From contig JAPNXP010000004.1 in the NCBI GenBank assembly GCA_028753945.1, positions 3,782,001 to 3,846,000 on the forward strand: DNA of 64,000 nt. Reading direction: 5' to 3'. This document shows, piece after piece, positions 21,845 through 64,000 of this stretch; the first letter of the stretch is position 1, and every line of letters begins with the position of its first letter. Source of the stretch: Hexactinellida sp. DTS-2022 (Eukaryota; Porifera; Hexactinellida). Below the pieces are notes generated by a model that ran no database searches, was not told where the DNA came from, and saw only the letters and a program-made list of their open reading frames with translations. The position numbers and the translations under genes are program-made.

Positions 21845-21899
21845 TAAAGGCAGTGATTCTAATACTGGGCCACTATACTATAGTATAGTCGGCACAGTA
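21845..21899 (+). repeat. Single 35-bp palindrome cassette
   Basis: ACTGGGCC, the 18-bp palindrome, then CGGCACAGT, in the (TAA) tract between head and hairpin. Other singles: about 30,944-30,993, 33,412-33,462, 48,212-48,262 and 51,570-51,627. Confidence 0.9.
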
Positions 21900-31852: not shown

Positions 31853-31972
31853 TAAAGGCAGTGATTCTAATACTGGGCCACTATACTATATTATAGTCGG
31901 CACAGTAATAATATTATTAAAGGCAGTAAGATTAGAACTGGGCCACTATATTATAGTATAGTCGGCACAGTA
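31853..31972 (+). repeat. Two palindrome cassettes with mutated centres
   Basis: Cores read CTATACTATATTATAG and CTATATTATAGTATAG: in each, one G/C position of the palindrome is changed on one arm only. Confidence 0.85.
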
Positions 31973-34225: not shown

Positions 34226-34345
34226 CAATATAATTATCGCAAGTTGAATCACTAGAGTAGGATTTAACAAGTTAAATCAATATAATTATCGCAAGTTGAA
34301 TCACTAGAGTAGGATTTAACAAGTTAAATCAATATAATTATTACA
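34226..34345 (+). repeat. Extra copy of the ~60-bp subrepeat
   Basis: 'aagttaaatcaatataatta' plus 'tcactagagtaggatttaac' occurs twice in a row here, against once in most units, showing the subrepeat zone changes length. Confidence 0.85.
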
Positions 34346-34727
34346 AGTTGAAACAATAGAATTAGATTTAACACTTTACTGAAATTGAAGTGTGAGTAAA
34401 CAAAGAAATTTCAACCCCCATTTATGGCAGAAATTGACCCCTTTATTGGAAAATTTATTCTCCCATCAGACGCAGAATTTTATGGCGAATCCAAATGTGA
34501 AATAAAATTTTGGGGTTTAGTAAAACATTTTTTGAGTTATGGACCAGACAAATTTTGAAAGGTGTTAAAGATGTGCCAAAAATTTGTTAATACAAAATCG
34601 TAACCCCAGGTGCAAATTAGACGTCGACTCCGAATCTACATGCCAAGTTTCAGCCCTCTATGTATACAGATGTGGCCAGGGCACCTGCTACGGAGAAATA
34701 ATAATAATAATAAAAATAATAATAATA

Positions 34728-34903
34728 AAGGCAGTGATTCTAATACTGGGCCACTATACTATAGTATAGTCGGCACAGTAAAAATAATAATAAAGGCAGT
34801 GATTCCAATACTGGGCCACTATACTATAGTATAGTCGGCACAGTAATAATAAAGGCAGCGATTCCAATACTGGGCCACTATACTATAGTATAGTCGGCAC
34901 AGT
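34728..34903 (+). repeat. Three palindrome cassettes
   Basis: Three intact 35-bp cassettes separated by (TAA)n-aaggcag linkers, between head and hairpin. Confidence 0.92.
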
Positions 34904-37064: not shown

Positions 37065-37132
37065 CATAGCATTCTATACATAAGGCAATGGTGCTGATTG
37101 ATGGACTTGGACCTGGGATTTGTTAGGTCAGT
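37065..37132 (+). repeat. P-element left terminal inverted repeat
   Basis: Starts CATAGCATTC and ends GGTCAGT, the inverse of 40138-40205 with one mismatch. At 68 bp it is about twice the 31 bp of the Drosophila P element. Confidence 0.95.
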
Positions 37133-39077
37133 TACTTTGGTTTTAGATCTAAATCCCAATACAGTTCTAAATTAATGTAGACTATCAATGTGAAGGGAAA
37201 TAATTGATAATCCACCACCCTTCTAAGAAAATTACGATTTGTAGGGATATATTTTTTATTTAATGTAATTTATATATATAAATATACTAATTATAACATA
37301 AAATAAGTATAAAAGCAACAATCAAAGAGAATACATAGTATGAAGGTAAATTAATAGAATAGTGATCTGAGTTCTACTAGAAGAGCAGTTAAAAGCAGTA
37401 GTACATCTATGACGACAGGGGGAGGCAATGTGGTTACGATGTGTCGGTTTCCTGAATGAGCGGATGGATTGTTGGTGTTAGTGGAGCTCCTCGTCTAAAT
37501 GATAGTAATGTAGAGAATACAGTCAAATGATGGTAGTATAGTAGATGCGCACTGGTATATCGGCATGTCAGGAAGCTATCTATAAGATTAGAAGAATTAT
37601 GTACTGAATTTTTTAAGTTTGCTATTATCTCGACCAATAACTATCGAATTAAAGTTTCTAACCTTCTTCGATAAAATACAATTAGCTACAGTAGTATAAA
37701 TTTTTTTAAGAATTTCCCATTTTGGAATCATACAAACACACCATTGCCTCCATATTTCACTATACTTTTCTTCTACAATAATAAGTGACAACTGAACCAA
37801 ATTCCGACGGCAGGATCCCTCGTAAAATAGTTTACTTAAATGTGAATGGTTATCGATTTTCAAAAATATTTCATACATTATGATGAGAGATTGGTAGACA
37901 ATTTCAGATGGATACTTAAGTGAGCCTCTATCAAGGAATTCAATCATTGAAAATCCGGTGTCGTTAATAACTTGAATATCTTTGGGAGATGTTAAAAAAT
38001 CTTTGCAGTGTCGACATTCTTTAGAATTTTTAAGATACCAAAAGATTGCATACCCAGCAACGTAATTTAGGCATTAAATTTGCGAATTATCAAATATAGG
38101 GTTAGGAATGTTAAGTATTTCACTTGTAACATACTCAAAATCAAACTCTGGGTGCATTTCTTCATCGTCCTCCTGTGTAAAATTTTTCAAATATTATTTA
38201 AGAGATATTTTATCAGACTGTTGATTTAAGTTAAAAAATTTGAGGAGATTAGATAATTGAAGTCGACGTTCACTCTCCAAAATTTGACAGTAAGATATAT
38301 TATAGTTTGAACCAGACATTTGACGATATAGACCGAAATGATGTTCTAATGGGTCATTTTGTATTCGAGAAGTCAGCAAATATTCAAAACCGCATTCAAG
38401 GGTCAATCTCTGTACTAAGAGAGGGAGGGCAATACAAGTGTGTCTAAAACTAGTGAATGTTTGTGGTGTAAGCTTCCCTCTAGACGTGGGAAGTAATTTC
38501 CAACAATCCAGCCATTTAACTACATGGTCCAAAAAGGATAATCTCGGATCGTTCACGCGAAGCGGAGCAAAATTTGGATTGTTGAAGCGAATATCTTTTC
38601 CGACCCAATTAACATTGAAAATGTTCCAGATTTTATTTATCAAATGTATGAATTTGACGATATGGCGATTTTCATTTGTTGTATTCTCATTATAGAAACT
38701 AGAAAGCCCCGCTGCTGTTGATTCATGAAAGATCTTAAGAGCTAAGTTTACATTTTGTCGCTCTAAATGAGATGGCCAACATGCTTTTGATGTTAGTTTT
38801 GGGGCTCTCTTAATTATGGAAAATTTGTCAGCTTTAAATAAGGTTCTGAGGTCGTAAAATGCTGCAAAGCATATTGGAGGGTATTTTGACTTAGTCAATT
38901 CCCTCGGATCCAAGATAATATTAGCAACAGGTATAGAAACTTTAAGCTGAGTAGATGGTATGATTACTGGTAGTGGAATATCATCGGTGCAAGTCTCAAA
39001 ATCAGGATAAATAAAAGTTTTCTCAAAGTCTTTTAAATTTAACCAGTTATTACGAATTGATTTCATAATGTGGACTA

Positions 39078-39644
39078 TGTCAAAGAATAAAATAAGGTTG
39101 CGCGTTGGGTTACATGGATGTACAACTCGCGGTTGCAACATTTTCGCGTCATATGAAAATTAATAAAAATTCGCGAGATCGGAATGGTGACGTTTTTATT
39201 ATCAAATGTTTTGATGTACAAATCATCGTTAACTAATACAGATCGGTCGATGAAAGGTCCGGTTTCTAAAATAACGATTTTTATAAAAAATAAAGGGGTG
39301 TTGTTAGACACATTAGTTATCCAGCCGTTTGGTAGGTCGATTAAATTTAGCTTAGAAAGAAGATCAGAATATGAATTAACTAGGAACTTATCCACCGTTT
39401 CTTCGTTGTCAGTTATGCTCTTGGAGTATGCAGATTCCATCAGCAGTCGTTCTTTATCATCTAGGCATAGTCTCTTTGGCTTGGAATTGAATTCAGAAAG
39501 ATAGGAAGGACAGTTGGGAAAAATGCTGGGTACTGCTGTCTTCTTCAGAGCTATTCTCTCTCTGGAAACTGTAACAGTATGAATCCCGTCATTGTAGGAT
39601 ATGGTCCTTTCGATGTCATCTTCTTTGAAATGACGAATGCATAC
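39078..39644 (-). CDS. P-element transposase exon 2, truncated frame
   Basis: Begins VCIRHFKEDDIERT, passes AVPSIFPNCP, a charged likely coiled-coil stretch (KERLLMESAYSKSITDNEET) and LPNGWITNVSNN, and ends at a stop after the inferred deletion junction; the last ~30 residues are out of frame with the rest of the family. Confidence 0.75.
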
Positions 39645-39699
39645 CTAAAGAAACTAATGTAAATATGGTAATCAATAATTGGAAATTATAGATACTTAC
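39645..39699 (-). other. 55-bp intron in the P-element transposase
   Basis: GTAAGTATC start, TTTCTTTAG end. Splicing is required to bring in the VCIRHF zinc ligands. Confidence 0.75.
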
Positions 39700-39855
39700 C
39701 CTCATCTGCTTGTTGGTTTCATAGTCCTTCCGTGGCCGTGGAATTGCCCTGAACCATTCTTCAAGTAACTTCGGGTCTCTTGGGAAATGAAAAGCGGAGA
39801 TAGACTCATCTTGGCTTTTATAATTAGACTTGCAGCCTGGGACAACACAAGACAT
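39700..39855 (-). CDS. THAP exon 1 of the P-element transposase
   Basis: 52 codons, MSCVVPGCKSNYK to NKQMR, ending at a GTAAGT donor. Holds the first two zinc-binding Cys and the invariant Trp. Intact on its own, so a THAP-only DNA-binding protein is conceivable. Confidence 0.85.
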
Positions 39856-40137
39856 GCTATTAGAAGTTTCTAATGAATTGTATTGTTGGGGAACGTTTCT
39901 GATGAAGATAGTGTCGTGAAATGAATTTAACAGTGATTTTTAAAACTTTTTAACTAGGTAGTAAAATAATATATAAATATTATGGTTGGTTAAAAATTAG
40001 ATAATCACAAGTTTTCGACATTCCTTCCTATGTACCATTTTTGGTGCAAATTGATGTAGAATGAATTATAATGGTTAGTTTAGGGTGTACAATGCTAAAT
40101 GCCAGCAGTAAATAAGCTTTACGCAAAATTTAATTTG

Positions 40138-40205
40138 ACTGACCTAACAAATCCCTGGTCCAAGTCCATCAATCAGCACCATTGCCTTATGTATAGAATG
40201 CTATG
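40138..40205 (-). repeat. P-element right terminal inverted repeat
   Basis: Reverse complement of the left repeat with T/A difference at position 50; followed by GCCATTC. Confidence 0.95.
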
Positions 40206-43200
40206 GCCATTCATTCATTACTTATTGATAATAAATTAAATTATTAGTTATTTATTTTAGCAATGTTATCCACGGTGATTTGAGTTTAGTCAACAAATTC
40301 CTTATATCATTATATTTTATTTAATCCATTGTATAGTAATACTACAATTAAATAGAAGCCAGCTGGAATTTATAAGTTGAATCAATATATTTATCTCAAG
40401 TTGAAACAATAGAGTAAGATTTAACAAGTTAAATCAATATAATTATAACAAGTTGTAACAATGGAATTAGATTCAATATAATTATTACAAGTTGAAACAA
40501 TAGAATTATATTTAACAGTTTTATTGAATCTGAAGTGTGAGAAAATACAGGAGATTGGTACCCCAATTAAGGCACAAATCTAGGCCAAATTGAAATTTTT
40601 TGATTTGCTAAAAGGTGTAGAATTTAATTATCTATCCGTACATGTAAAATTTATCAAGCTCACTATTAATTATTTAATGTTATGAGCCATAATTAGTTTA
40701 AATAGGTGTTAAAATTATTTGATCAAAAATCGTAACCCCAGGTGCAAATTAGACGGTCACTCGGCAACTACATGCCAAGTTTCAGCCCTTAATGTATACT
40801 GGTGTGGCCAGGGCACCTGCTACGGAAAAATACTAAAAATAAAAAATCCAAAATTGCAGCTGTGCCGACGCATGTTCCTTTGGTGGCACTATATTTTGGT
40901 GGTGGTTTATTGATAGTGCCTCCAAAGGAACATGCTGTCGGCACAGGCTGCAATTTTGGATTTTTTTTTCGCCATGTCATCATCACTATGAAGGTGTCAA
41001 ATTATTTCAAAACGGTGTTACACAAGGCATCGACCCTTAGAGTGGTGGAAGTTTCCATTTAGTTCACTTCATTTTAGAGATATTCAAGTTTGAGTAGAAT
41101 ATAATAGCTGATGACTCAGCATTTTTTATGTGAGTGTTGGGTCATCACACAACATCAACTGACCCATTTTAAATATCGAATTAACAAAATTGTAAAAACA
41201 CATTTTTTTAGCGATGTCATCATCACCTCAAGGTGTCAAGGCCCACTTGTATAGGTGGCACGTGCCATAAGGACCAATTGATAAATTGAAAGTTTGTTTC
41301 TATCTTCTATGATCTCTGAGATTTATGATATTTAGCCAATTAGTATAAAAATGTAATTAATGTATTAATTATTTAACACCATTATTATATACAGCAAAAT
41401 AAATTAAGTTCAAATATTTGCAATTAATAATAATTTAAATTGAATTTCACCATAATATTTGAATTCCACGCACTCGATAACCCCAATAATCTAATTGGAA
41501 CCGTCTCTATAAGTTAAATACAAAAGGAATGAATTATAATAAATTACGTCAGTACATTAATTGTGCAAGAATATTCTCGCCGAAATAAATATAATCACTT
41601 AATCTGTCGTTGTTGTGGAATGTAAAATCTTAACGGTTCATCATAAACCATCTTTAGTTTAATGCCATTCATTCATTACTTATTGATAATAAATTAAATT
41701 ATTAGTTATTTATTTTAGCAATGTTATCCACGGTGAGTTGAGTAAAGTCAACAAATTCCTTATATAAATTAATTTAATTTAATCCATTGTATAGTAATGC
41801 TACAATTAAATAGAAGCCAGCTGGAATTTATAAGTTGAATCAATTTAATTATCGCAAGTTGAATCAATAGAGTAGGATTTAACAAGTTAAATCAATATAA
41901 TTATTACAAGTTAAAACAATGGAATTAGATTTAACACTTTTACAGAAATTGAAATTTTGAGTAAAAAAGAAATTTCAACCCCCATTTATGGCAAAAATTA
42001 AAGCCATTTTTGAAAGTTTTCTTCTCCCAACAGACGCAGAATTTTAAGATTAATCCAAATATGAAATAAAATTTGGGGGTTTAGTAAAACATATTTTGAG
42101 TTATGGACCAGACAAATTTTGAAAGGTGTTAAAGATGTGTCAAAAATGTGTTAATTGAAAATCGTAACCCCAGGTGCAAATTAGACGGTCCCATCGCACC
42201 TACATCCCAAGTTTCAGCCCATAATGTAAACAGGTGTGGCCAGGGCACCTGCTACGGAGAAATAAAAATAATAATAAAAATCCAAAATTGCAGTCTGTGC
42301 CGACGCATGTTCCTTTGGTGGCAGTATATTTTTTGGTTGTTTATTGATAGTGCCTCCAAAGGAACATGCTGTCGGCACAGGCTGCAATTTGGGATTTTTT
42401 TTCGCCAAGTCATCATCACCATGAAGTTGTTAAATTATTTCAGAAAGGTGTTCCAGAAGGCAACGACCCTTAATGAGTTGGAAGTTTCCATTTAGCTCAC
42501 TTCATTTGAGAGATATTCAAGTTTAGTAGAATATAATCTGTGATGATTCAGCATTTTTTAAGTGCGTGTTGGATATTCACCCAACTCCAAGCAACCCATG
42601 CAAATTATTTAATTTACAAAATTGTAAAATACATTTTTTTGAAGATGTCATCATCACCTCAAGGTGTCAAGACCCGCTTGTATAGGTGGTACGTGGCATA
42701 AGGATCAATTGATAAATTGGAAGTTTGTTTCTATCTGACATAATTTCTGAGATTAATGAAATTTAGCTAATTAGTATAAATATTTAATTAATTTATTAAT
42801 AATTTAACACCAATATTATGTACATCAAAATAAATTAAGTTCAATTATTTGAAATAATTATTAATCTAAATTGAATTTAATTATCATATTTGAATTCAGC
42901 GCACTCGATAACCCCACTAATCTATTTGGAACCATCTCTATGAGCGAATTAACTAGAATAAAATTCGTCATGTATCCATTGTGCAAGAATGTTCTAAGCA
43001 GAAATAGATATAATCACATAATCTGTCGTTGTTATGGAATGTAGAATCTTAGATTTCAATTATAAAATAGAAGCCTACTCAATCTCACAAGTTGAATCAC
43101 TAGAATTATCGCAAGGTGAAACAATAGAATTAGATTTAACACTTTCAATTGAACTGAAGTGTTAGTAAACAAAGGAAACTAGCAACTCAATTGTGGCACT

Positions 43201-44304
43201 AACGAAACCCAATTAAAAAATCCGTGCAATGTGAAAAGGTGTAGAATTTAATTCTCTATCCGTACATGTAAATTCTATCAAGCTCAATATTAATTATTTC
43301 ATGTTATGAGCTATAATTAGTTTAAATAGGTGTTGAAATCATTTGATAAAAAATCGTAACCCCAGGTGCAAATTATACGGTCACTCCGCAACTACATGCC
43401 AAGTTTCAGCCCTCAATGTATACAGGTGTTGCCAGGGCATCACCTACCGAGAAAAAAATAATAATAAAATCCAAAATTGCACCCTGTGCCGACGCATGTT
43501 CCTTTGGTGGCACTATATTTTGTTTTTTGTTTATTGATAGTGCCTCCAAAGGAACATGCTGTCGGCGCAGGCTGCAATTTTGGATTTTTTTTCGCCAAGT
43601 CATCAACGCCCAAGGTGTGAAGAAGCATTTGTTAATTGGCCCGAGTCACAAGGAACGGTAGATAAATTTGAAGTTTGTTTCTATCATAAACCATCTAGAG
43701 TTTAATGCCATTCATTCATTATGTATTGATAATAAATTATATTATTAGTTATTTATATTAGCATTGTTATCCACGGTTGAGTTGAATTAAGTCAACAAAT
43801 TCCTTATATTATATTATTTTATTGAATCCATTGTATGGTAAATTAAATAGAAGCCAGCTGCAATTTCTAAGTTAAATCAATTTAATTATCGCAAGTTGAA
43901 TCAATAGAGTAAGATTTAACAAGTTAAATCAATATTATTATTACAAGTTGAAACAATGGAATTAGATTTAACAGTTATACTGAAACTGAAGTGTGAGTAA
44001 ACAAAGAAATTTCAACCCCCATTTATGGCAGAAATAAAACTCTTTATTGAAAGTTTTCTTCTCCCATCAGACGCAGAATTTTATGGTGAATCCAAATGTG
44101 AAATAAAATTTGGGGGTTTAGTAAAACATATTTTATGTTATGGACCAGAAAAATTTTGAAAGGTGTTAAAGATGTGTCAAAAATTTGTTAGTCAAAAATC
44201 GTAACCCCAGGTGCAAATTAGACGGTCCCATCGCACCTACATGCCAAGTTTCAGCCCATCAACTATAAAGCTCTGGCCAGGGCACCGTCTACGGAGAAAA
44301 AAAA

Positions 44305-45540
44305 AATCCAAAATTGCACCCTGTGCCGACGCATGTTCCTTTGGTGGCACAATATTTTGTTGGTTGTTTATTGATAGTGCCTCCAAAAGAACTTGCTGTC
44401 GGCGCAGGCAGTAATTTTGGATTTTTTTTTCGCCATGTCATCAACACTATGAAGGTGTTAAATTATTTCAAAAAGGTGTTACAGAAGGCATCGACCCTTA
44501 GAGTGGAGGAAGTTTCCATTTAGTTCACATAATTTTAGAGATATTCAAGTTTGAGTAGAATATAATAGCTGATGACTCAGCATTTTTTATGTGAGTGTTG
44601 GGTCATCACCCAACATCAACTAACCCATTTTAAATATCGAATTAACAAAATTGTAAAAATACATTTATTTGACGATGTCATCATCACCTCAAGGTTTCAA
44701 GACCCATTTGTTGAGGTGTTATGTGGCATAAGGACCAATTGATAAATTGAAAGTTTGTTTCTATCTTGTATTATCTCTGAGATTAATGAAATTTAGCTAA
44801 TTAGTATAAATATTTTATTTATTAATTTATTATTTAGCACCATTATTATATACAGCAAAATAAATTAAGTTCAATTATTTGCAATTATTATTAATTTAAA
44901 TTGAATTTCACTATAATATTTGAATTCCACGCACTCGATAACCCCAATAATCTATTTGGAACCGTCTATAAGTTAAATACAAAATGAATTAATTATAATT
45001 AATTAAGTCAGTACATTAATTGTGCAAGAATATTCTCGCCGAAATAAATATAATCACTTAATCTGTCGTTGTTGTGGAATGTAAAATCTTAACGGTTCTA
45101 TCATAAACCATCTTTAGTTTAATGCCATTCATTCATTATGTATTGATAATAAATTATATTATTAGTTATTTATATTAGCAATGTTATCCACGGTTGAGTT
45201 GAATTAAGTCAACAAATTCCTTATATTATATTATTTAATTTAATCCATTGTATGGTAAATTAAATAGAAGCCAGCTAGAATTCACAAGTTAAATCAATAT
45301 AATTGTAGCAAGTTGAAACAATAGTGTAAGATTTAACAACTTAAATCAATATAAATATTACAAGTTGAAACAATGGAATTAGATTTCACAGTTTTACTGA
45401 AATTGAAGTGTGAGTAAACAAAGAAATTTCAACCCCCATTTATGGCAGAAATAAAACTCTTTATTGAAAGTTTTCTTCTCCCATCAGACGCAGAATTTTA
45501 TGGTGAATCCAAATGTGAAATAAAATTTAGGGGTTTAGTA
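44305..45540 (+). repeat. Segmental duplicate of 49,494-50,705
   Basis: Shared diagnostic variants: 'ggcacaatattttg', 'agaacttgctgtcggcgc', 'tttagcaccattattat', 'aaaatgaattaattata', 'ccagctagaattcacaag'. Offset about 5.19 kb. Confidence 0.85.
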
Positions 45541-46591
45541 AAACATATTTTGTGTTATGGACCAGACAAATTTTGAAAGGTGTTAAAGATGTGTCAAAAA
45601 TTTGTTAATCAAAAATCGTAACCCCAGGTGCAAATCAGACGTCGACTCCGAACCAACATTCCAAGTTTTAGCCCTCTATGTACATAGGTGTGGCCAGGGC
45701 ACCTGCTACGGAGAAATAAAAATAATAAAAAATCCAAAATTGCAGCTGTGCCGACGCATGTTCCTTTGGTGGCACTATATTTTGTTGGTGGGTCATTGAT
45801 AGTGCCTCCAAAAGAACATGCTGTCAGCACATCTGCAATTTTGGATTTTTTTTCGCCAAGTCATCAACGCCTCAAGGTGTCATGATCCATTTGTTAATTG
45901 ATCCGAGCCACAAGGACGGGAGATAAATTTGAAGTTTGTTTCTATCATAAACCATCTTGAGTTTAATGCCATTCATTCATTATGTATTGATAATAAATTA
46001 TATTATTAGTTATTTATTTTAGCAATGTTATCCATGGTTGGTTGAGTTGAGTCAACAAATTCCTTATATTATATTATTTAATTTAATCAATTGTATAGTA
46101 ATACTAAAATTAAATAGAAGCCAGCTGGAATTTATAAGTTAAATCAATATAATTATCGCAAGTTGAATCACTAGAGTAGGATTTAACAAGTTAAATCAAT
46201 ATAATTATTACAAGTTGAAACAATAGAATTAGATTTAACACTTTACTGAAATTGAAGTGTCAGTAAACAAAGAAATTTCAACCCCCATTTATGGCAGAAA
46301 TTGACCCCTTTATTGAAAAATTTCTTCTCCCATCAGACGCAGAATTTTATGGCGAATCCAAATGTGAAATAAAATTTTGGGGTTTAGTAAAACATTTTTT
46401 GAGTTATGGACCAGACAAATTTTGAAAGGTGTTAAAGATGTGTCAAGAATTTGTTAATACAAAATCGTAACCCCAGGTGCAAATTAGACGTCGACTCCGA
46501 ATCTACATGCCAAGTTTCAGCCCTCTATGTATACAGGTGTGGCCAGGGCACCTGCTACGGAGAAATAATAATAATAATAAAAATAATAATA

Positions 46592-46986
46592 AAGGCAGTG
46601 ATTCTAATACTGGGCCACTATACTATAGTATAGTCGGCACAGTAAAAATAAAAATAAAGGCAGTAAGATTAGAACTGGGCCACTATACTATAGTATAGTC
46701 GGCACAGTAAAAATAATAAAAATAATAAAGGCAGTGATTCCAATACTGGGCCACTATACTATAGTATAGTCGGCACAGTAAAAATAATAATAATAATAAT
46801 ATAAATAATATAGGCAGTGATTCTAATACTGGGCCACTATACTATAGTATAGTCGGCACAGTAATAAAGGCAGTGATTCCAATACTGGGCCACTATACTA
46901 TAGTATAGTCGGCACAGTAAAAATAATAATAATAAAGGCAGTGATTCCAATACTGGGCCACTATACTATAGTATAGTCGGCACAGT
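46592..46986 (+). repeat. Six palindrome cassettes in tandem
   Basis: Six copies alternate linker types (gattctaat, aagattagaa, gattccaat) and (TAA)n lengths; same orientation, between head and hairpin. Confidence 0.93.
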
Positions 46987-49493
46987 AAAAATAATAATAA
47001 TAAAATCCAAAATTGCAGCCTGTGCCGACGCATGTTCATTTGGTGGCACTATATTTTGGTGGTGGTCTATTGATAGTGCCTCCAATGGAACATGCTGTCG
47101 GCACAGGCTGCAATTTTGGATTTTTTTTCACCAAGTCATCATCACTATAAAGGTGTTAAATTATTTCAGAAAGGTGTTTCAGAAGGCTACGACCCTTAGA
47201 GTGGTGGAAGTTTCCATTTTGCTCACTTCGTTTCAAAGATATTCAAGTTTCAGTAGAATATAATAAGTGATGAATCAGCATTTTTTATGTGAGTGTTGGG
47301 TCATCACCCAACTCCAACTAACCCATTTTAATAATATAATTCACAAAATTGTAAAAATACATTTTTTTGACGATGTCATCATCACCTCAAGGTGTCAAGA
47401 TCCACTTGTATAGGTGGTACGTGCCATAAGGACCAATTGATAAATTTAAAGTTTGTTTCTATCTTGTATCATTTCTGAGATTAATGAAATTTAGACAATT
47501 AGTATAAATATTTAATTAATCTAAGATAATTTAACACCAATATTATTTACATCAAAATAAATTAAGTTCAATATTTTCTATAATAATTAATTTAAATTTA
47601 ATTTCACTATCATATTTGAATTCAGCGCACTCGATACCCTAATAATCTAATTGGAACCGTTTCTCTAAGTTAAACACAGAGCGAATTAATTAGAATTAAA
47701 TATCTCATGTATCCATTGTTCAAGAATATTCTGAGCAGAAATAAATATAATCACATAATCTGTTGTTGTTATGGAATGTAAAATCTTAGTTTTCAATTAG
47801 AAAATAGAAGCCTACTCGATCTCACAAGTTGAATCAATGTAATTATCACAAGTTGAAACAATAGAATTCGATTTAACACTTCAATTGAACTGAAGTGTTA
47901 GTAAACAAAGGAAACTTGCAACTCAATTGTGGCACAAACGAAACTCAATTTAAAAATTCGTGCACTGTGAAAAGGTGTAGAATTTAATTCTCTATCGAAT
48001 GCATATAAATTAACTATTTGTGCACTATTTATTGTTCTTTTTCTAATATTAAACAGGTGCAAAAATGTGTCCAAAAAAATGTAGTAAAAAATCGTGACCC
48101 CAGGTGCACATCTGTAACCCATGAGACACCTGTCCTGAAATTTTGGGTTCTTAGTTAATTAAACTCTGTTCAGTGGACGATCTACGGACCAAAAATAATA
48201 ATAACTAACCAAGGCAGTAAGATTAGAACTGGGCCACTATACTATAGTATAGTCGGCACAGTAATAATAATATAAAAAATCCAAAATTGCAGCCTGTGCC
48301 GACGCATGTTCCTTTGGTGGCACTATATTTTGTTGGTTATTTATTGATAGTGCCTCCAAAGGAACATGCTGTCCGCACAGGCTGCAATTTTGGATTTTTT
48401 TTTCGTCATTTCATCATCACTATGAAGGTGTTTTATTATTTCAGAAAGGTGTTTCAAAAGGCTACGACCCTTAGTGAGTTGGAAGTTTCGTTTTTGCTCA
48501 CTTCGTTTCAAAGATATTCTCGTTTCAGTAGAATATTATAAATGATGAGTCAGCATTTTTTATCTGCGTGTTGGGTATTCACCCATCTCCAACCAACCCA
48601 TGCGAAATATTTAATTAACAAAATTGTAAAAACACATTTTTTTGACGATGTCATCATCACCTCAAGGTGTCAAGACCCATTTCTAGAGGTGTTACGTGGC
48701 ATAAGGATCAATTGAGTAATTGGAAGTTTGTTTCTATCTTGTATCATCTCTGAGATTTATGATATTTAATTAATTAGTATAAATAATTATCAATATTATA
48801 TATAATTTAACACCAATTTCAATGTCAACTTACAATTATTAAGTTAAATTATTTTGCATAAATAATTAATTAATTAATTTGGTTATCCAATTTCATTCCG
48901 CACTCTCGATAACCCCTAATAAACAAATTGGAAGCATCTATATAGGTAATATACTGACAGAATTAATTATAATTAATTACGTCAGTATATTAACAGTGCA
49001 ATAATATTCTCGCAGAAGTAAATATAATCACATAATCTGTCGTTGTTATGAAACATATAATCTTTTTTTTCAATAGGAAAATAGAAGCCTACTCGATCTC
49101 ACAAGTTGAATCAATATAATTATTACAAGTTGTAACAATGGAATTAGATTTCACAGTTTTATTGAAATTGAAGTGTTGAGTAAACATCGGAATTTCAACT
49201 CCCATTTATGGCAGAAATTAAACCAATTTTAGCAAATTTTATTCTCCCATCAAACGCAGAATTTTAAGATGAATCCAAATATGAAATAAAATTTGGGGGT
49301 TTAGTAAAAGATATTTTGAGTTATGGACCAGACAAATTTTGAAAGGTGTTAAAGATGTGTCCAAAATTTGTTAATCAAAAATCGTAACCCCAGGTGCACA
49401 TCTGTAACCCATGAGACACTTGTGCTAAAAATTTGGGCTCTTAGTTGATAAACCTCTGTTCTGTGGAGTGGCTACGGATAAAAAATAATAATA

Positions 49494-50705
49494 AAATCCA
49501 AAATTGCTGCCTGTGCCGACGCATGTTCCTTTGGTGGCACAATATTTTGTTGGTTGTTTATTGATAGTGCCTCCAAAAGAACTTGCTGTCGGCGCAGGCA
49601 GCAATTTTGGATTTTTTTTTCGCAATGTCATCATCACTATGAAGGTGTTAAATTATTTCAAAAAGGTGTTACAGAAGGCATCGACCCTTAGAGTGGAGGA
49701 AGTTTCCATTTAGTTCACATAATTTTAGAGATATTCAAGTTTGAGTAGAATATAATAGCTGATGACTCAGCATTTTTTATGTGAGTGTTGGGTCATCACC
49801 CAACATCAACTAACCCATTTTAAATATCGAATTAAAAAAATTGTAAAAGTACATTTATTTGACGATGTCATCATCACCTCAAGGTTTCAAGACCCATTTG
49901 TTGAGGTGTTATGTGGCATAAGGACCAATTGATAAATTGAAAGTTTGTCTCTATCTTGTATTATCTCTGAGATTAATGAAATTTAGCTAATTAGTATAAA
50001 TATTTTATTTATTAATTTATTATTTAGCACCATTATTATATACAGCAAAATAAATTAAGTTCAATTATTTGCAATTATTATTAATTTAAATTGAATTTCA
50101 CTATAATATTTGAATTCCACGCACTCGATAACCCCAATAATCTATTTGGAACCGTCTATAAGTTAAATACAAAATGAATTAATTATAATTAATTAAGTCA
50201 GTACATTAATTGTGCAAGAATATTCTCGCCGAAATAAATATAATCACTTAATCTGTCGTTGTTGTGGAATGTAAAATCTTAACGGTTCTATCATAAACCA
50301 TCTTTAGTTTAATGCCATTCATTCATTATGTATTGATAATAAATTATATTATTAGTTATTTATATTAGCAATGTTATCCACGGTTGAGTTGAATTAAGTC
50401 AACAAATTCCTTATATTATATTATTTAATTTAATCCATTGTATGGTAAATTAAATAGAAGCCAGCTAGAATTCACAAGTTAAATCAATATAATTGTAGCA
50501 AGTTGAAACAATAGTGTAAGATTTAACAACTTAAATCAATATAAATATTACAAGTTGAAACAATGGAATTAGATTTCACAGTTTTACTGAAATTGAAGTG
50601 TGAGTAAACAAAGAAATTTCAACCCCCATTTATGGCAGAAATAAAACTCTTTATTAAAAGTTTTCTTCTCCCATCAGACGCAAAATTTTATGGTGAATCC
50701 AAATA
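49494..50705 (+). repeat. Segmental duplicate of 44,305-45,540
   Basis: See the partner's diagnostic variants. The last part (50,520-50,700) is also almost identical to 55,680-55,860, including 'tctttattaaaagttttc'. Confidence 0.85.
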
Positions 50706-51851
50706 TGAAAAAAATCCAAAATTGCAGCCTGTGCCGACGCATGTTCCTTTGGTGGCACTATATTTTGTGGTTGGTTTACTGATAGTGCCTCCAAAGGAAC
50801 ATGCTGTCGCCACAGGCTGCAATTTTGGATTTTTTTTGCCAAGTCATCAACGTCCAAGGTGTGAAGAAGCATTTGTTATTTGGTCCGAGTCACAAGGAAC
50901 GGTAGATAAATTTGAAGTTTGTTTCTATCATAAACCATCTAGAGTTTAATGCCATTCATTCATTATGTATTGATAATAAATTATATTATTAGTTATTTAT
51001 TTTAGCAATGTTATCCACGGTTGGTTGAGTTGAGTCAACAAATTCCTTATATTATATTATTATATTTAATCCATTGTATAGTATTACTACAATTAAATAG
51101 AAGCCAGCTGGAATTTATAAGTTAAATCAATTTAATTATTGCAAGTTGAAACAATAGTGAAAGATTTAACAAGTTAAATCAATATAAATATTACAAGTTG
51201 AAACAATGGAATTAGATTTCACAGTTTTACAGTAATTGAAGTGTGAGTAAACAAAGAAATTTCAACCCCTATTTATGGCAGAAATTAAACCCTTTATTGA
51301 AAATTTTCTTCTCCCATCAGACGCAGAATTTTATGGTGAATCCAAATATGAAATAAAATTTTGGGGTTTATAAAAACATATTTTGAGTTATGGACCAGAC
51401 AAATTTTGAAAGGTGTTAAAGATGTGTCCAAAATTTGTTAATCAAAGATCGTAACCCCAGGTGCAAATTAGACGGTCCCATCGCACCTACATGACAAGTT
51501 TCAGCCCATCAACTATAAAGCTCTGGCCAGGGCACCGTCTACGGAGAAAAAAAAAATAATAATAAAAATAATAAAGGCAGTGATTCCAATACTGGGCCAC
51601 TATACTATAGTATAGTCGGCACAGTAATAAAATTTGGGGGTTTAGTAAAACAATTTTTGAGTTATGGACCAGACAAAATTTGAAAGGTGTTAAAGATGTG
51701 TCAAAAATTTCTTAATCAAAAATCGTGACCCCAGGTGCAAATTAGACGGTCCCTCCGCAACTACATGCCAAGTTTCAGCCCATCAACTATAAAGCTCTGG
51801 CCAGGGCACCGTCTACGGAGAAAAAAAAAATCCAAAATTGCACCCTGTGCC

Positions 51852-52099
51852 CATAGGCGCCGAAAGTGGGGGGGTTAGGGAGGGTGTCACCCCCCCTGGC
51901 CGAGGAGAAGTCAGGGAAGAAAAATGGAAAATTACTGATTCCATAATGAGTTTGTATAAATTTCAGTTGATGATGTGTATATCTATACAATTATCCCCAT
52001 CCAACATTGATTTTATCCCCATACGTATTGTTTTTTTAACTTTGACATTTGAATATTACGTCACACCCCCCCTAGCGTTTGAGAGTTTCGGCGCCCATG
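51852..52099. mobile_element. 248-bp MITE inserted into a central hairpin
   Basis: Ends CATAGGCGCCGAAA and, inverted, CATGGGCGCCGAAA. The exact 8-bp duplication CCTGTGCC (51844-51851, 52100-52107) splits the hairpin's left arm. CA termini and the 8-bp duplication allow hAT or P superfamily. Interior has G7 and C7 runs; no coding. Confidence 0.9.
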
Positions 52100-55000
52100 C
52101 CTGTGCCGACGCATGTTCCTTTGGTGGCACTATATTTTGTCAGTTGTTTATTGATAGTGCCTCCAAAGGGACATGCTGTCGGCGCAGGCTGCAATTTTGG
52201 ATTTTTTTCGCCAAGTCATCAATGCCCAAGGTGTGAAGAAGCATTTGTTAAATGTTCCGAGTCACAAGGAACGGTAGATATATTTGAAGTTTGTTTCTAT
52301 CTTAAACCATCTTGAGTTTAATGCCATTCATTCATTATGTATTGATAATAAGTTATATTAATAGATATTTACTTTAACAATGTTATCCACGGTTGGTTGA
52401 GTTGAGTCAACAAATTCCTTATATTATATTATTTTATTTAATCCATTGTATAGTAATACTACAATTAATTAGAAGCCAGCTGGAATTTATAATTTAAATC
52501 AATTTAATTATCGCAAGTTGAATCAATAGAGTAAGATTTAGCAAGTTAAATCAATATAATTATTACAAGTTGAAACAATGGAATTAGATTTAACAGTTAT
52601 ACTGAAACTGAAGTGTGAGTAAACAAAGAAATTTCAACCCCCATTTATGGCAGAAATAAAACTCTTTATTGAAAGTTTTCTTCTCCCATCAGACGCAGAA
52701 TTTTATGGTGAATCCAAATGTGAAATAAAATTTAGGGGTTTAGTAAAACATATTTTGTGTTATGGACCAGACAAATTTTGAAAGGTGTTAAAGATGTGTC
52801 AAAAATTTGTTAATCAAAAATCGTAACCCCAGGTGCAAATCAGACGTCGACTCCGAACCAACATTCCAAGTTTTAGCCCTCTATGTACATAGGTGTGGCC
52901 AGGGCACCTGCTACGGAGAAATAAAAATAATAAAAATAAAAAATAAAATCCAAAATTGCACCCTGTGCCGACGCATGTTCCTTTGGTGGCACTATATTTT
53001 GTTGGTTGTTTATTGATAGTGCCTCCAAAGGAACATGCTGTCGGCTCAGGCTGCAATTTTGGATTTTTTTTTGCCAAGTCATCAACGCCCAAGGTGTGAA
53101 GAAGCATTTGTTAATTGGTCCGAGTCACAAGGAACGGTAGATAAATTTGAAGTTTGTTTCTATCTTAAACCATCTTGAGTTTGATGCCATTCATTCATTA
53201 TGTATTGATAATAAATTATATTATTAGTTATTTATCTTAGCATTGTTATCCACGGTTGAGTTGAATTAAGTCAACAAATTCCTTATATTATATTATTTTG
53301 TTTAATCCATTGTATGGTAAATTAAATAGAAGCCAGCTGCAATTTATAAGTTAAATCAATTTAATTATCGCAAGTTGAATCAATAGAGTAAGATTTAACA
53401 AGTTAAATCAATATAATTATTACAAGTTGAAACAATGGAATTAGATTTAACAGTTATACTGAAACTGAAGTGTGAGTAAACAAAGAAATTTCAACCCCCA
53501 TTTATGGCAGAAATAAAACTCTTTATTGAAAGTTTTCTTCTCCCATCAGACGCGGAATTTTATAGTGAATCCAAATGTGAAATAAAATTTGGGGGTTTAG
53601 TAAAACAATTTTTGAGTTATGGACCAGACAAAATTTGAAAGGTGTTAAAGATGTGTCAAAAATTTCTTAATCAAAAATCGTTACCCCAGGTGCAAATTAG
53701 ACGGTCCCATCGCACCTGCATGCAAAGTTTAAGCCCATCAACTATAAAGCTCTGGCCAGGGCACCGTCTACGAGAAAAAAAAAAAAAAAATCCAAAATTG
53801 CAGCTGTGCCGACGCATGTTCCTTTCGTGGCACTATATTTTGTTGATGGTTTATTGATAGTGCCTCCAAAGGAACATGCTGTCGGCGCAGGCTGCAATTT
53901 TGGATTTTTTTTCGCCATGTCATCATCACTATGAAGGTGTTAAATTATTTCAAAAAGGTGTTACAGAAGGCATCGACCCTTAGAGTGGTGGAAGTTTCCA
54001 TTTAGTTCATATAATTTTAGAGATATTCAAGTTTGAGTAGAATATAATAGCTGATGACTCAGCATTTTTTATGTGTGTGTTGGGTCATCACCCAACATCA
54101 ATTAACCCATTTTAAATATCGAATTAACAAAATTGTAAAAATACATTTTTTTGACGATGTCATGATCACCTCAAGGTGTCAAGACCCACTTGTATAGGTG
54201 GTACCTGGCATAAGGACCAATTGATAAATTGAAAGTTTGTTTCTATCTTGTATCATCTCTGAGATTAATGAAATTTATCTAATTAGTATAAATATTTAAT
54301 TTATTTATATATTATTTAACACGATTATTATATACAGCAAAATAAATTAAGTTCAATTATTTGCAATTATTATTAATTTAAATTGAATTTCACTATAATA
54401 TTTGAATTCCACGCACTCGATAACCCCAATAATCTATTTGGAACCGTCTATAAGTTAAATACAAAATGAATTAATTATAATTAATTAAGTCAGTCATTAA
54501 TTGTGCAAGAATATTCTCGCCGAAATAAAAATAATCACTTAATCTGTCGTTGTTGTGGAATGTAAAATCTTAACGGTTCTATCATAAACCATCTTTAGTT
54601 TAATGCCATTCATTCATTATGTATTGATAATAAATTATATTATTAGTTATTTATTTTAGCAATGTTATCCATGGTTGGTTGAGTTGAGTCAACAAATTCC
54701 TTATATTATTATATTATATTCAATCCATTGTATAGTAATACTAGAATTAAATAGAAGCCAGCTGGAATTTATAAGTTGAATCAATTTAATTATCGCAAGT
54801 TGAAACAATAGTGAGAGATTTAACAAGTTCAATCAATATAATTATTACAAGTTGAAACAATGGAATTAGATTTCACAGTTTTATTGAAATTGAAGTGTTG
54901 AGTAAACAAAGGAATTTCAACCCCCATTTATGGCAGAAATTAAACCAATTTTAACAAATTTTCTTCTCCCATCAGACGCAGAATTTTAAGATGAATCCAA

Positions 55001-56087
55001 ATATTAAATAAAATTTTGGGGTTTATTAAAACATATTTTGAGTTATGGACCAGACAAATTTTGAAAGGTGTTAAAGATGTGTCAAAAATTTGTTAATCAA
55101 AAATCGTAACCCCAGGTGCAAATTAGACGGTCCCATCGCACCCACATGCCAAGTTTCAGCCCATCAACTATAAAGCTAAGTCCAGGGCACCGTCTACGGA
55201 GAAAAAATAAAAATAATAAAAAAAAAAATCCAAAATTGCACCCTGTGCCGACGCATGTTCCTTTGGTGGCACTATATTTTATTGGTTGGTTATTGATAGT
55301 GCCTCCAAAGGAGCATGCTGTCAGCACAGGGTGCAATTTTGGATTTTTTTTCGCCCAGTCATCAACGCCCAAGGTGTGAAGAACCATTTGTTAATTGGTC
55401 GGAGTTACAAGGAACGGTAGATAAATTTGAAGTTAGTTTCTATCATAAACCATCAAGAGTTTAATGCCATTCATTCATTATGTATTGATAATAAAATATA
55501 TTATCAGGAATTTATTTTAGCAATGTTATCCACGGTTGGTTGAGTTGAGTCAACAAATTCCTTATATTATTATAATTTATTTAATCCATTGTATAGTAAT
55601 ACTAGAATTAAATAGAAGCCAGCTGGAATTCACAAGTTAAATCAATATAATTGTAGCAAGTTGAAACAATAGTGTAAGATTTAACAACTTAAATCAATAT
55701 AAATATTACAAGTTGAAACAATGGAATTAGATTTCACAGTTTTACTGAAATTGAAGTGTGAGTAAACAAAGAAATTTCAACCCCCATTTATGGCAGAAAT
55801 AAAACTCTTTATTAAAAGTTTTCTTCTCCCATCAGACGCAAAATTTTATGGTGAATCCAAATATGAAATAAAATTTGGGGGTTTAGTAAAACAATTTTTG
55901 AGTTATGGACCAGACAAAATTTGAAAGGTGTTAAAGATGTGTCAAAAATTTCTTAATCAAAAATCGTGACCCCAGGTGCAAATTAGACGGTCCCTCCGCA
56001 ACTACATGCCAAGTTTCAGCCCATCAACTATAAAGCTCTGGCCAGGGCACCGTCTACGGAGAAAAAATAATAATAAAAATAAAAATA

Positions 56088-56390
56088 AAGGCAGTGATTC
56101 CAATACTGGGCCACTATACTATAGTATAGTCGGCACAGTAATAAAGGCAGTGATTCTAATACTGGGCCACTATACTATAGTATAGTCGGCACAGTAATAA
56201 TAAAAATAATAAAGGCAGTGATTCTAATACTGGGCCACTATACTATAGTATAGTCGGCACAGTAATAAAGGCAGTAAGATTAGAACTGGGCCACTATACT
56301 ATAGTATAGTCGGCACAGTAAAAATAATAAAAATAATAAAGGCAGTGATTCCAATACTGGGCCACTATACTATAGTATAGTCGGCACAGT
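56088..56390 (+). repeat. Five palindrome cassettes in tandem
   Basis: Five intact cassettes with mixed linker types, followed by a normal hairpin at 56,402. Confidence 0.93.
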
Positions 56391-57605
56391 AAAAAAAAAA
56401 ATCCAAAATTGCAGCCTGTGCCGACGAATGTTCCTTTGGTGGCACTATATTTTGTTGGTTGTTTATTTATAGTGCCTCCAAAAGAACATGCTGTCGGCGC
56501 AGGCTGCAATTTTGGATTTTTTTTTTCACCATGTCATCATCACTATGAAGGTGTTAAATTATTTCAAAAAGGTGTTACAGAAGGCATCGACCCTTAGAGT
56601 GGTGGAAGTTTCCATTTAGTTCACTAAATTTTAGAGATATTCCAAGTTTGAGTAGAATATAATAGCTGATGACTCAGCATTTTATATGTGAGTGTTGGGT
56701 CATCACCCAACATCAACTAACCCATTTTAAATATTGAATTAACAAAATTGTAAAAACACATTTTTTTTACGATATCATCATCACCTCAAGGTGTCAAGAC
56801 CCACTTGTATAGGTGGCACGTGCCATAAGGACCAATTGATAAATTGAAAGTTTGTTTCTATCTTCTATGATCTCTGAGATTTCTGATATTTACTTAATTA
56901 GTATAAATAATTATTAATATTATTTATCATTTAACACCAATTTCAATGTCAACTTATGTTTATTAAGTTAAATTATTTTGTCATAAATAATTAATTAATT
57001 AATTTTGTTATCAAATTTCAATTCCGCACTCTCGATAACCCCTAATAAACAAATTGGAAGCATCTATATAAGTAATATACTGACTGAATTAATTATAATT
57101 AATTACGTCAGTCTATTAATAGTGCAATAATATTCTAGCAGAAGGAAATATAATCACACAATCTGTCGTTGTTATGGAATGTACAATCTTAGTTTCCAAT
57201 TAAAAAATAGAAGCCTACTCGATCTCACAAGTTGAATCAATATAATAATAACGAGTTGAAACAATAGAATTAGATTTAACACTTTCAATTGAACTGAAGT
57301 GTTAGTAAACAAAGGAAACTTGCAACTCAATTGTGGCACAAACTAAGTACAATTTTAAAATTCGTGCACTGTTAAAAGGTGTAGAATTTAATTTTCTATC
57401 GAATGCATGTAAATTTAATTTTCGGGTACTATTTATTGTTCCAGTTTCAATATAAAACAGGTGCAAAAATGTGTCCAAAAAAATGTAATAAAAAATCGTG
57501 ACCCCAGGTGCACATCTGTAACCCATGAGACACCTGTCCTGAAAATTCCAGTTCTTAGTAAATATAACTCTGTTCTGAGGAGAGGATACGGATAAAAAAT
57601 ATACC

Positions 57606-57859
57606 AAGGCAGTGATTCCAATACTGGGCCACTATACTATAGTATAGTCGGCACAGTAATAACTAACCAAAGCACTAAGACCAATACTGGGCCACTATAC
57701 TATAGTATAGTCGGCACAGTAATAATAATAATAATAAGTATAAAGGCAGTGAGATTAGAACTGGGCCACTATACTATAGTATAGTCGGCACAGTAATAAT
57801 AATAAAGGCAGTGATTCCAATACTGGGCCACTATACTATAGTATAGTCGGCACAGTAAA

Positions 57860-57897
<38 letters not shown>

Positions 57898-58519
57898 GTA
57901 TAAAGGCAGTGAGATTAGAACTGGGCCACTATACTATAGTATAGTCGGCACAGTAATAATAATAAAGGCAGTGATTCCAATACTGGGCCACTATACTATA
58001 GTATAGTCGGCACAGTAATAATAATAATATTAAAGGCAGTAAGAATAGAGCTGGGCCACTATACTATAGTATAGTCGGCACAGTAAAAATACAATAATAA
58101 AATAAAGGCAGTGATTCCAATACTGGGCCACGATACTATAGTATAGTCGGCACAGTAATAATAATAAAAATAATAAAGGCAGTGATTCCAATACTGGGCC
58201 ACTATACTAAAGTATAGTCGGCACAGTAATAATAAAGGCAGTGATTCCAATACTGGGCCACTATACTAAAGTATAGTCGGCACAGTAATAATATAGGCAG
58301 TGATTCCAATACTGGGCCACTATACTAAAGTATAGTCGGCACAGTAATAATAATAAAGGCAGTGATTCCAATACTGGGCCACTATACTATGGTATAGTCG
58401 GCACAGTAATAAAGGCAGTGATTCCAATACTGGGCCACTATACTAAAGTATAGTCGGCACTGTAATAAAGGCAGTGATTCCAATACTGGGCCACTATACT
58501 ATAGTATAGTCGGCACAGT
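57606..58519 (+). repeat. Fourteen palindrome cassettes in tandem
   Basis: Fourteen copies, linkers of variable (TAA)n, variants at the palindrome centre (ACTAAAGTA four times, ACTATGGTA once, a left-arm CACGATACTA once). No hairpin follows; the array orientation flips right after at 58,520. Confidence 0.93.
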
Positions 58520-58825
58520 AAAAAAGATTATATATTTCATAACAACGACAGATCATGTGATTATATTTACTTCTGCGATAATATTATTGCACTGTTAATA
58601 TACTGACGTAATTAATTATAATTCATTCAGTCAGTATATTTGTTACTTATATAGATGTTTCCAATTTGTTTATTAGGGGTTATCGAGTGTGTGGAATTGA
58701 AATTTGATGGCCAAATTAATTAATTAATTATTTATGACAAAATAATTTAAATTAATAACTGTAAGTTGACATTGAAATTGGTATATTATAAATAATATTA
58801 ATAATAATTTATACTAATTAATTAA
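58520..58825 (-). repeat. Complex repeat, minus orientation, long-arm part
   Basis: Reverse complement of the 'ctgtcgttgttatg', 'gcactctcgataacccc' and 'gtataaataatta' modules, cut off by the MULE-like insertion. Confidence 0.85.
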
Positions 58826-63166: not shown

Positions 63167-64000
63167 CTTTGGAGGCACTATCAATAAACCACCATCAAAA
63201 TACAGTGCCACCAAAGGTACATGCGTCAGCACAGGCTGCAATTTTGGATTTTTACTACTGTGCCGACTATACTATAGTATAGTGGCCCAGTTCTAATCTT
63301 ACTGCCTTGGTTATTATTAGTCCGTAGCCTCTCCCCAGAACAGAGTTTAATTAACTCAGAGCCCAAATTTTCAGGATAGGTGTCTCATGGGTTACAGATG
63401 TGCACCTGGGGTCACGATTTATTATTATATTTTTTTGGACGCATATTTGCACCTGTTTAATATTTGAAAAAGAACAATAAATAGTGCGCGAATATTTAAT
63501 TTATATGCATTCGATAGAGAATTAAATTCTACACCTTTTCACAGTGCACGAATTTTTAAATTGGGTTTCGTTTGTGCCATAATTGAGTTGCAAGTTTCCT
63601 TTGTTTACTAACACTTCAGTTCAATTGAAAGTGTTAAATCTAATTCTATTGTTTCACCTTGCGATAATTCTAGTGATTCAACTTGTGGGATCGAGTAGGT
63701 TTCTATTTTATAATTGAAAACTAAGATACTACATTCCATAACAACGACAGATTATGTGATTATATTTATTTCTGCTTAGAATATTCTTGCACAATGGATA
63801 CATGACGAATTTAATTCTAATTAATTACCTCTGTGTTTAACTTATAGAGATGGTTCCAAATAGATTAGTGGGGTTATCGAGTGCTCTGAATTCAAATATG
63901 ATAGTGAAATTCAATTTAGATTAATAATTATTGCAAATAATTGAACTTAATTTATTTTGATGTACATAATATTGGTGTTAAATTATTAATAGATTAATTA
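63167..64000 (-). repeat. Complex repeat, minus orientation, to the window edge
   Basis: Second hairpin arm, one palindrome cassette (63,256-63,303), a type C head ('cccatgagacac' inverted), then subrepeat and long-arm modules. Continues beyond the window. Confidence 0.88.

What the first reader, a model, noticed from the sequence alone, without database searches (positions are those of the whole stretch)
57606..58519. 35-bp palindrome cassettes stacked at one fixed site of a larger repeat
A cassette (ACTGGGCC + 18-bp perfect palindrome + CGGCACAGT) with an 'aaggcag' linker occurs about 46 times in the window. Wherever I can place it in a unit, it is in the (TAA)n tract between the head and the hairpin, in the same orientation relative to the unit, in stacks of 1, 2, 3, 5, 6 or 14. 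Linker subtypes are intermixed, so growth is not simple doubling of one monomer. It looks like a cassette accumulating at a docking site rather than a free MITE.
Basis: partly seen in the sequence, partly recalled or inferred. Interest (0 to 1): 0.75.

Follow-up and report, generated by a model that had tools for sequence, protein, structure and literature searches.

The report
Stacked ends of self-inserting rolling-circle transposon
The repeated 35-base palindrome is the 5' end of a rolling-circle transposon (a Helentron) that appears to keep inserting into the same short TAA tract just inside its own end, so that old ends pile up in stacks beside head-to-tail arrays of the element.

Summary
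The cassette is real: 45 copies in the window and 5753 exact-pattern matches in a 112-Mb eukaryotic genome. It is not a free MITE. The "larger unit" is a non-autonomous Helentron (HINE): copies with an open ~1700-aa Rep/PIF1-helicase/endonuclease frame carry the same modules at their ends. In ORF orientation, cassettes form the 5' terminus and the long hairpin the 3' terminus. Three empty sites show seamless insertion in A/T runs without target duplication. The (TAA)n tract is the spacer between 5' hairpin and body, and seems to be a landing pad: a new element lands there, leaving a cassette-free head-hairpin junction and displacing the old cassette outwards. Support: first linker matches head type (p=1e-8); later linkers reflect outer units (p=0.003; 0.03 without this 14-stack); cassettes and hairpins are coupled (34 hairpins, 45 cassettes in 13 arrays judged complete). 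Local block duplication also enlarges stacks, including this 14-stack and a 21-stack on an autonomous copy. Multiple 5' termini by self-insertion were proposed for Fusarium Helitrons; here the process is genome-wide and its order is partly readable.

The parts
57606..58519 (+). stack of 14 cassettes with linkers at the outer end of a head-to-tail array; in transposon (ORF) orientation these are 14 stacked 5' termini on the - strand
57221..57592 (+). body ('head', b-type, ending ..GAGGATACGGA) of the last unit before the 14-stack
57593..57605 (+). A/TA-rich spacer between head and first linker: the proposed landing pad
   Evidence: spacer statistics
56531..57100 (+). INT module of the last unit
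56401..56520 (+). 120-bp hairpin (HP): 3' terminus of the element in ORF orientation; its outer arm TCCAAAATTGCAGCCTGTGCCGAC holds the 10-bp inverted partner of the cassette's GTCGGCACAG
56105..56390 (+). stack of 5 cassettes at the preceding junction
46609..46986 (+). stack of 6 cassettes
34745..34903 (+). stack of 3 cassettes
20010..58519 (+). head-to-tail array of HINE units, 25 hairpins (26 by the looser tokens) and 35 cassettes on the + strand, interrupted by other insertions
23711..27309 (-). 4-unit array with 3 terminal cassettes inserted in opposite orientation into a body module of the + array; an empty-site copy at 52349-52523 shows seamless insertion without target duplication
52349..52523 (+). 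uninterrupted (empty-site) copy of the stretch split at 23711-27309
58614..58825 (-). inverted piece of another unit (INT 360-570) shortly beyond the 14-stack: the DNA in which the array ends
63257..63291 (-). single cassette in a - strand unit with an adjoining hairpin

Best explanation
The large unit is a non-autonomous Helentron (HINE), an internal-deletion derivative of an autonomous Rep/PIF1-helicase/endonuclease Helentron present in the same genome. SHOWN: module order, ends shared with autonomous copies, seamless insertion without target duplication in A/T runs (three sites), one orientation, head-linker coupling, cassette-free junctions between units. INFERRED: elements repeatedly insert into the spacer of resident copies, in phase with the TAA repeat. 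Each insertion adds a unit head-to-tail and displaces the resident's 5' terminus outwards, so displaced termini stack last-in-first-out at the array's outer end. Rep may then start at any stacked terminus and stop at the first 3' hairpin, carrying several termini along; this would explain single units with three cassettes. Local tandem duplication of cassette blocks enlarges some stacks further.
For: Autonomous copies: PF14214 gives 151 matches (a lower bound) in two score groups; in the ~104-bit group many open frames are 1695-1709 aa. L030 has Helitron_like_N, PIF1 and a C-terminal Exo_endo_phos domain, an HUH motif (PHVH), a Y-x3-Y motif and Walker A. Module ends: L030 and L033 show HEAD3', HEAD5', ORFs, HEAD5', CONN', HP', with 3 cassettes 5' of L030; L032 shows 21 cassettes, HEAD3' and part of HEAD5' before the ORFs; L031 shows INT'-HP' at its 3' side. 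Empty sites: window 23711-27309 versus 52349-52523, L012 versus L040, L026 versus its own inverted neighbour 477-653. Head and first linker: p=9.5e-9; later cassettes A-class in 3 of 20 (no a-type unit outside) versus 17 of 29 (a-type unit outside), p=0.003. Counts: 13 arrays judged complete, 34 HP and 45 cassettes, rho 0.86; stack size versus run of units rho 0.69, n=16. Junctions: head directly to HP 914, cassette to HP 652. Spacers: 58 of 66 cassette-to-A-linker spacers share one phase. Adjacent units have median identity 89.4% (n=54), units of different loci or strands 86.1% (n=2606).
Against: The 14-stack follows a run of only one unit, and one five-unit run ends in a single cassette; with nine runs of the window's + array added, the run-size correlation drops to rho 0.43, n=25. 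Thirteen of the 29 later cassettes in the second group come from the 14-stack; without it the contrast is 8 of 16 against 3 of 20, p=0.03, and cassettes within a stack are not independent. Cassettes exceed hairpins, and adding three dropped cases (L011, L018, a lone cassette of L019) gives 35 HP, 53 cassettes, rho 0.76. Five of 32 first linkers after a-type heads are not A-class, among them a single-unit element in L015. No hairpin was found in the ~2 kb fetched beyond the L032 ORF. Exact block duplications occur in stacks, and three units of the window's - array are identical over 520 bp at 852-bp spacing, so local duplication also works. The TAA phase would also survive 3-bp slippage. Loci were picked by cassette, so terminality is not an unbiased estimate.
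Confidence: 0.75

Rival explanations
1. Stacks are a minisatellite: cassette blocks multiply by unequal exchange or replication slippage at the transposon's end, and unit arrays are ordinary tandem duplications.
For: 160-bp two-copy duplication at 98% inside the 14-stack; exact seven-spacer block twice in the 21-stack; three identical units at 852-bp spacing in the window's - array; weak run-size correlation in the window's + array.
Against: 85 distinct spacers among 132; head type predicts the first linker, and outer heads predict later linkers less strongly; only 3 of 54 adjacent unit pairs are at least 97% identical, one of them an overlap artefact; cassette and hairpin numbers are coupled.
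Confidence: 0.2
2. Arrays arise in one event by rolling-circle read-through past a weak 3' hairpin (terminator bypass or multimer circles).
For: Such arrays are reported for Helitrons (passage in PMC4067079); three identical units in the window's - array.
Confidence: 0.1
3. The cassette is an independent small mobile element (MITE-like or a parasite) that docks in the TAA tract.
For: Fixed site and orientation; a few cassettes without a recognised head, e.g. L019:9514.
Against: First linker coupled to the head; cassettes lie at the 5' end of autonomous copies; the cassette shares a 10-bp inverted motif with the hairpin at the other end; one apparent inverted cassette among the 11 matches.
Confidence: 0.04

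Closest known systems
Helentrons and their non-autonomous HINE/DINE-1 elements (Thomas et al. 2014, PMC4067079; passages and section 6 read)
   Same: Rep/helicase/endonuclease ORF; subterminal inverted repeats, palindromic near the 5' end; 3' palindrome; no target duplication; T-rich targets with a variable T string; deletion derivatives; some copies with microsatellite or tandem repeats.
   Different: The 3' inverted motif lies about 15 bp from the end inside the long palindrome (38-60 bp in mite HINEs); the inverted repeat is 10 bp rather than 12-15; 5' termini are stacked up to 21-fold and arrays carry a nesting order, which the passages read do not describe.
Fusarium oxysporum Helitron2-type FoHeli elements with multiple 5' termini (PMC5148889; passages read)
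   Same: Several short 5' termini with one 3' terminus; the authors propose self-insertion followed by nicking at the outermost 5' end and stopping at the first 3' end.
   Different: There a number of copies, many partial; here thousands of cassettes, a TAA landing pad, head-to-tail arrays and a linker order that fits repeated rounds.
Oyster Cg_HINE elements carrying satellite-like repeats (PMC7492417; passages read)
   Same: HINE with microsatellite and tandem repeats in fixed orientation; T-rich insertion without duplication.
   Different: There the repeats are central monomers between the ends; here the repeated piece is the 5' terminus itself.
Tandem Helitron arrays in bats and plant centromeres (cited in PMC4067079 and PMC5148889; originals not read)
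   Same: Arrays of rolling-circle elements in tandem.
   Different: Explained there by bypass or circular intermediates; here many junctions lack the 5' end and neighbours are mostly diverged.

Membership tests
Helentron / HINE | Partner protein with HUH Rep domain and PIF1-type helicase | tested here: met
   (PIF1 and Helraiser helicase matches)
Helentron / HINE | C-terminal APE-like endonuclease domain in the partner protein | tested here: met
   Exo_endo_phos families at residues 1244-1431 of the L030 ORF, just above cut-off
Helentron / HINE | Subterminal inverted repeats (12-15 bp in mite HINEs) | tested here: inconclusive
   perfect 10-bp CTGTGCCGAC/GTCGGCACAG at both ends (sequence); shorter, and nearer the 3' end, than described
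Helentron / HINE | Palindrome at the 3' end | tested here: met
   hairpin of the window unit, -48 kcal/mol, z -14.9
Helentron / HINE | T-rich target, no target site duplication | tested here: met
   three empty sites among 12 arrays whose flanks were tested against the held loci only; exact cut point ambiguous within the A/T run
Helentron / HINE | Non-autonomous copies are deletion derivatives sharing both ends with the autonomous copy | tested here: met
   four copies looked at: L030 and L033 clear; L032 5' side only; L031 3' side only
Helentron / HINE | Rolling-circle transposition activity | not testable with these tools
   needs an assay
canonical Helitron (Helitron1) | 5' TC and 3' CTRR termini | tested here: not met
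   ORF-orientation ends are T(n)ACTGTGCC.. and ..TTTTGGAT(n)
MITE / TIR transposon | Target site duplication | tested here: not met
   none at three empty sites
self-insertion origin of multiple 5' termini | Displaced termini ordered by the units they came from | tested here: met
   p=9.5e-9 first linker, p=0.003 later linkers, 0.03 without the 14-stack; statistical, not shown array by array

The most novel reading that the evidence does not exclude
The (TTA)n tract just inside the 5' hairpin is an evolved self-landing pad. The transposon uses its own ends as a preferred, renewable safe harbour, builds satellite-like arrays by last-in-first-out nesting, and uses the stacked 5' termini as a bank of alternative initiation sites, so that stack size raises mobility (up to 21 ends on an autonomous copy).
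Probability: 0.2. Interest if true: 0.7.

Novelty: new variant of a known kind. Interest (0 to 1): 0.5.

Why it matters
Rolling-circle transposons form tandem arrays and satellite-like repeats by routes that are hard to tell apart (read-through, circular intermediates, self-insertion). Here the order of subtype-tagged 5' ends carries a record of insertion order, so the competing routes can be compared from one assembly, and whether extra 5' ends increase transposition becomes a direct question.

Tried and rejected
Retrotransposon tail, the first idea from the A/TAA tract: dropped when ORF-bearing copies proved to be Helentrons with these modules as ends. Ribozyme-bearing elements: no hammerhead among the Rfam matches of window 44000-64000, only sub-threshold matches, mostly microRNA hairpins (the rest of the window was not searched). 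First Helitron group (one copy looked at, L029, 1902-aa frame): no cassette and no unit module. Co-mobilised stacks: runs of two or more identical spacers shared between different stacks were sought and one was found, L026 with L027, which are near neighbours on C1, so inheritance of whole stacks is weakly supported. Isolated units: L037 and L038, picked by hairpin alone, gave a copy that breaks off without a cassette and a copy whose end lies outside the fetched stretch; no conclusion. Empty sites: of 12 arrays, three had a full spanning match in the held loci; a short partial one for L027 (57 nt, 81%) was left aside. Papers: the four-term search listed only PMC5148889; two searches listed other papers that were not opened (PMC4067079, was), one search listed none, and of the 30 papers three were opened in part. 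The library lacks most subscription papers, so novelty claims are limited to that. Organism not identified.

Full report
WHAT WAS CHECKED. The window is part of contig C13 of a 112.4-Mb, 18-contig eukaryotic genome of unnamed species. The cassette is present as described: 45 copies in the window at up to 8 mismatches, 34 of them perfect, none in 20 Markov-1 simulated windows. Genome-wide the 35-place pattern ACTGGGCC-N18-CGGCACAGT gives 2901 forward and 2852 reverse matches, and 0 for the reversed control. A cassette end followed within 18 nt by the start of another linker gives 3432 matches.

THE LARGER UNIT. Modules were taken from the window (hairpin HP 120 bp, INT 570 or the short CONN 105, HEAD5 425, HEAD3 182, then A/TAA tract and cassettes) and mapped over the window and 20 stretches of contig C1 (10 kb each, chosen because they contain cassettes). 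They form head-to-tail arrays HP-INT/CONN-HEAD-(TAA)n-[cassettes]-HP-... Where an array start was in view it was usually a hairpin. Of 38 cassette stacks on C1, 13 are followed by the next hairpin (one of them after a degenerate cassette) and 25 by something else. The 14-stack of the finding is of the second kind. So cassettes mark an end rather than an internal insertion; because the stretches were picked by cassette, this is not an unbiased rate.

IDENTITY. PF14214 (Helitron Rep domain) gives 151 matches, a lower bound, in two score groups. One first-group copy (L029) carries no cassette or module. In four copies of the second group (L030-L033) the longest frame is 1698-1700 aa. The L030 ORF has Helitron_like_N, PIF1 helicase and a C-terminal Exo_endo_phos domain, the combination that defines Helentrons. 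It also has an HUH motif, a Y-x3-Y motif and a Walker A motif, and its helicase part matches PIF1 structures and the Helraiser structure. L033 has the same order, without a cassette at its HEAD3 side but with one cassette inside. L032 has 21 cassettes, HEAD3 and part of HEAD5 before the ORFs; no hairpin was found in the ~2 kb fetched beyond its ORF. L031 has INT and HP at its 3' side, and another unit at its 5' side. The common units are therefore best read as internal-deletion derivatives, i.e. HINEs, and in ORF orientation the cassette is the 5' terminus and the hairpin the 3' terminus. Both ends share the 10-bp inverted motif CTGTGCCGAC.

INSERTION. For 12 arrays the flanks were joined, A runs left out, and compared with the held loci. 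Three have a full spanning match. The 4-unit array at window 23711-27309 has one at 52349-52523 (97%) and in many other units; L012 has L040 (96%); L026 has the other arm of an inverted repeat beside it, 477-653 (88%). None shows a target duplication. The exact cut is ambiguous because element and target both carry A runs (T in ORF orientation), the same ambiguity that PMC4067079 reports for mite HINEs (section 6). Eight of 12 array ends have exactly five A after the cassette.

HOW THE STACKS ARISE. In a single element the order is head, (TAA)n, linker, cassette. If another element inserts in the (TAA)n of a resident, the result is head, short TAA remnant, A(n), HP ... head, (TAA)n, linker, cassette, TAA remnant, linker, cassette: a cassette-free junction between units and a stack at the end. 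Five predictions were examined. (1) Cassette-free junctions should be common: 38 head-to-HP (a-type heads) against 21 cassette-to-HP in the sample; genome-wide 914 (gap up to 17) against 652 (gap up to 15). (2) The cassette next to a head should belong to it: A-class linker after 27 of 32 a-type heads and 1 of 20 b/c-type heads, p=9.5e-9. (3) Later cassettes should reflect outer units: A-class in 3 of 20 where the last head is b/c and no a-type unit is seen outside, 17 of 29 where one is, p=0.003, and 34 of 49 in a-only arrays. Thirteen of the 29 come from the 14-stack; without it 8 of 16, p=0.03. (4) Cassettes and hairpins should roughly balance: 34 HP and 45 cassettes in 13 arrays judged complete by eye, rho 0.86. 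Dropped from that set because the start was not fetched, the hairpin was missing or the structure was complex: L009, L010, L011, L013, L014, L018, L020, one array and one pair of L023, L025, L028, L033, a lone cassette of L019, the window's + array and the small groups near both ends of the window. L011, L018 and the lone L019 cassette have too many cassettes for their hairpins; with them the sums are 35 and 53, rho 0.76. L019's hairpin, split in two hits, was counted as one, and the truncated hairpin of L021 as one. Genome-wide there are 5753 cassettes and 3605 hairpins by exact pattern; corrected with sample exact-match rates (146 of 164; 69 of 106) about 6460 and 5540, ratio 1.17, a rough figure from a cassette-selected sample. 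(5) Neighbouring units should be little more alike than others: median identity of a-type units 89.4% (54 adjacent pairs), 88.4% (266 non-adjacent in one locus and strand), 86.1% (2606 between different loci or strands); 3 of 54 adjacent pairs reach 97%, and one of those (L014:5193/5078) is an overlap artefact. In addition, the tract after a cassette has one phase of the TAA repeat in 58 of 66 cases, and stack size follows the number of units since the last stack with rho 0.69 (n=16, complete arrays).

AGAINST. The 14-stack follows a run of one unit, and a five-unit run ends in one cassette; including the nine runs of the window's + array lowers the run-size correlation to rho 0.43 (n=25). The 14-stack contains a 160-bp duplication and the 21-stack an exact seven-spacer block twice. 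Three units in the window's - array are identical over the 520 bp compared, at 852-bp spacing. Local duplication therefore contributes, and may dominate the longest stacks. Stack L028 contains a 3' remnant of a head between two cassettes, which fits loss of a unit between displaced ends.

VERSUS WHAT IS KNOWN. Helentron/HINE membership rests on the features listed in the membership table. PMC5148889 reports Fusarium Helitrons with several 5' termini and proposes self-insertion plus nicking at the outer end (passages). The present case extends this to a genome-wide process with a likely landing tract and a partly readable order. Inheritance of stacks through transposition is supported only by single units with three cassettes (L015, L021) and one spacer pair shared by two neighbouring loci.

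VERDICT. New variant of a known kind.

Noticed in passing
L036 (G000:C2:896700-898800): 21 stacked cassettes at the 5' side of an autonomous Helentron copy, with an exact seven-spacer block duplicated.
   Followed up: partly
window 23931-25635: Three units on the - strand are 100% identical over the 520 bp compared, at 852-bp spacing: a recent local amplification.
   Followed up: partly
L030, first open frame (554-1864): A 2A-like motif (..IGGIEINPGP) near the start of the first open frame of the autonomous Helentron; the next frame (1940-2815) matches DUF6570.
   Followed up: no
L029 (G000:C1:2900500-2909900): A second Helitron group with a 1902-aa open frame and repeats on its flanks, without cassettes.
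   Followed up: no
window 60435-62455 (-) and 38194-39141 (-): Frames matching hAT-type (DUF4371, Dimer_Tnp_hAT) and TNP-like (GTP-binding insertion domain) transposase families.
   Followed up: no
G000:C7:1390121-1390152: The only match that looks like an inverted cassette after a head end.
   Followed up: no
L028, stack near 4780-5321 (-): A short remnant of a head end lies between two cassettes, as if a unit between them was deleted.
   Followed up: no
window hairpins, e.g. 48278-48396: The 3' hairpin resembles microRNA precursors in Rfam below the gathering score; most likely only because it is a long hairpin.
   Followed up: no
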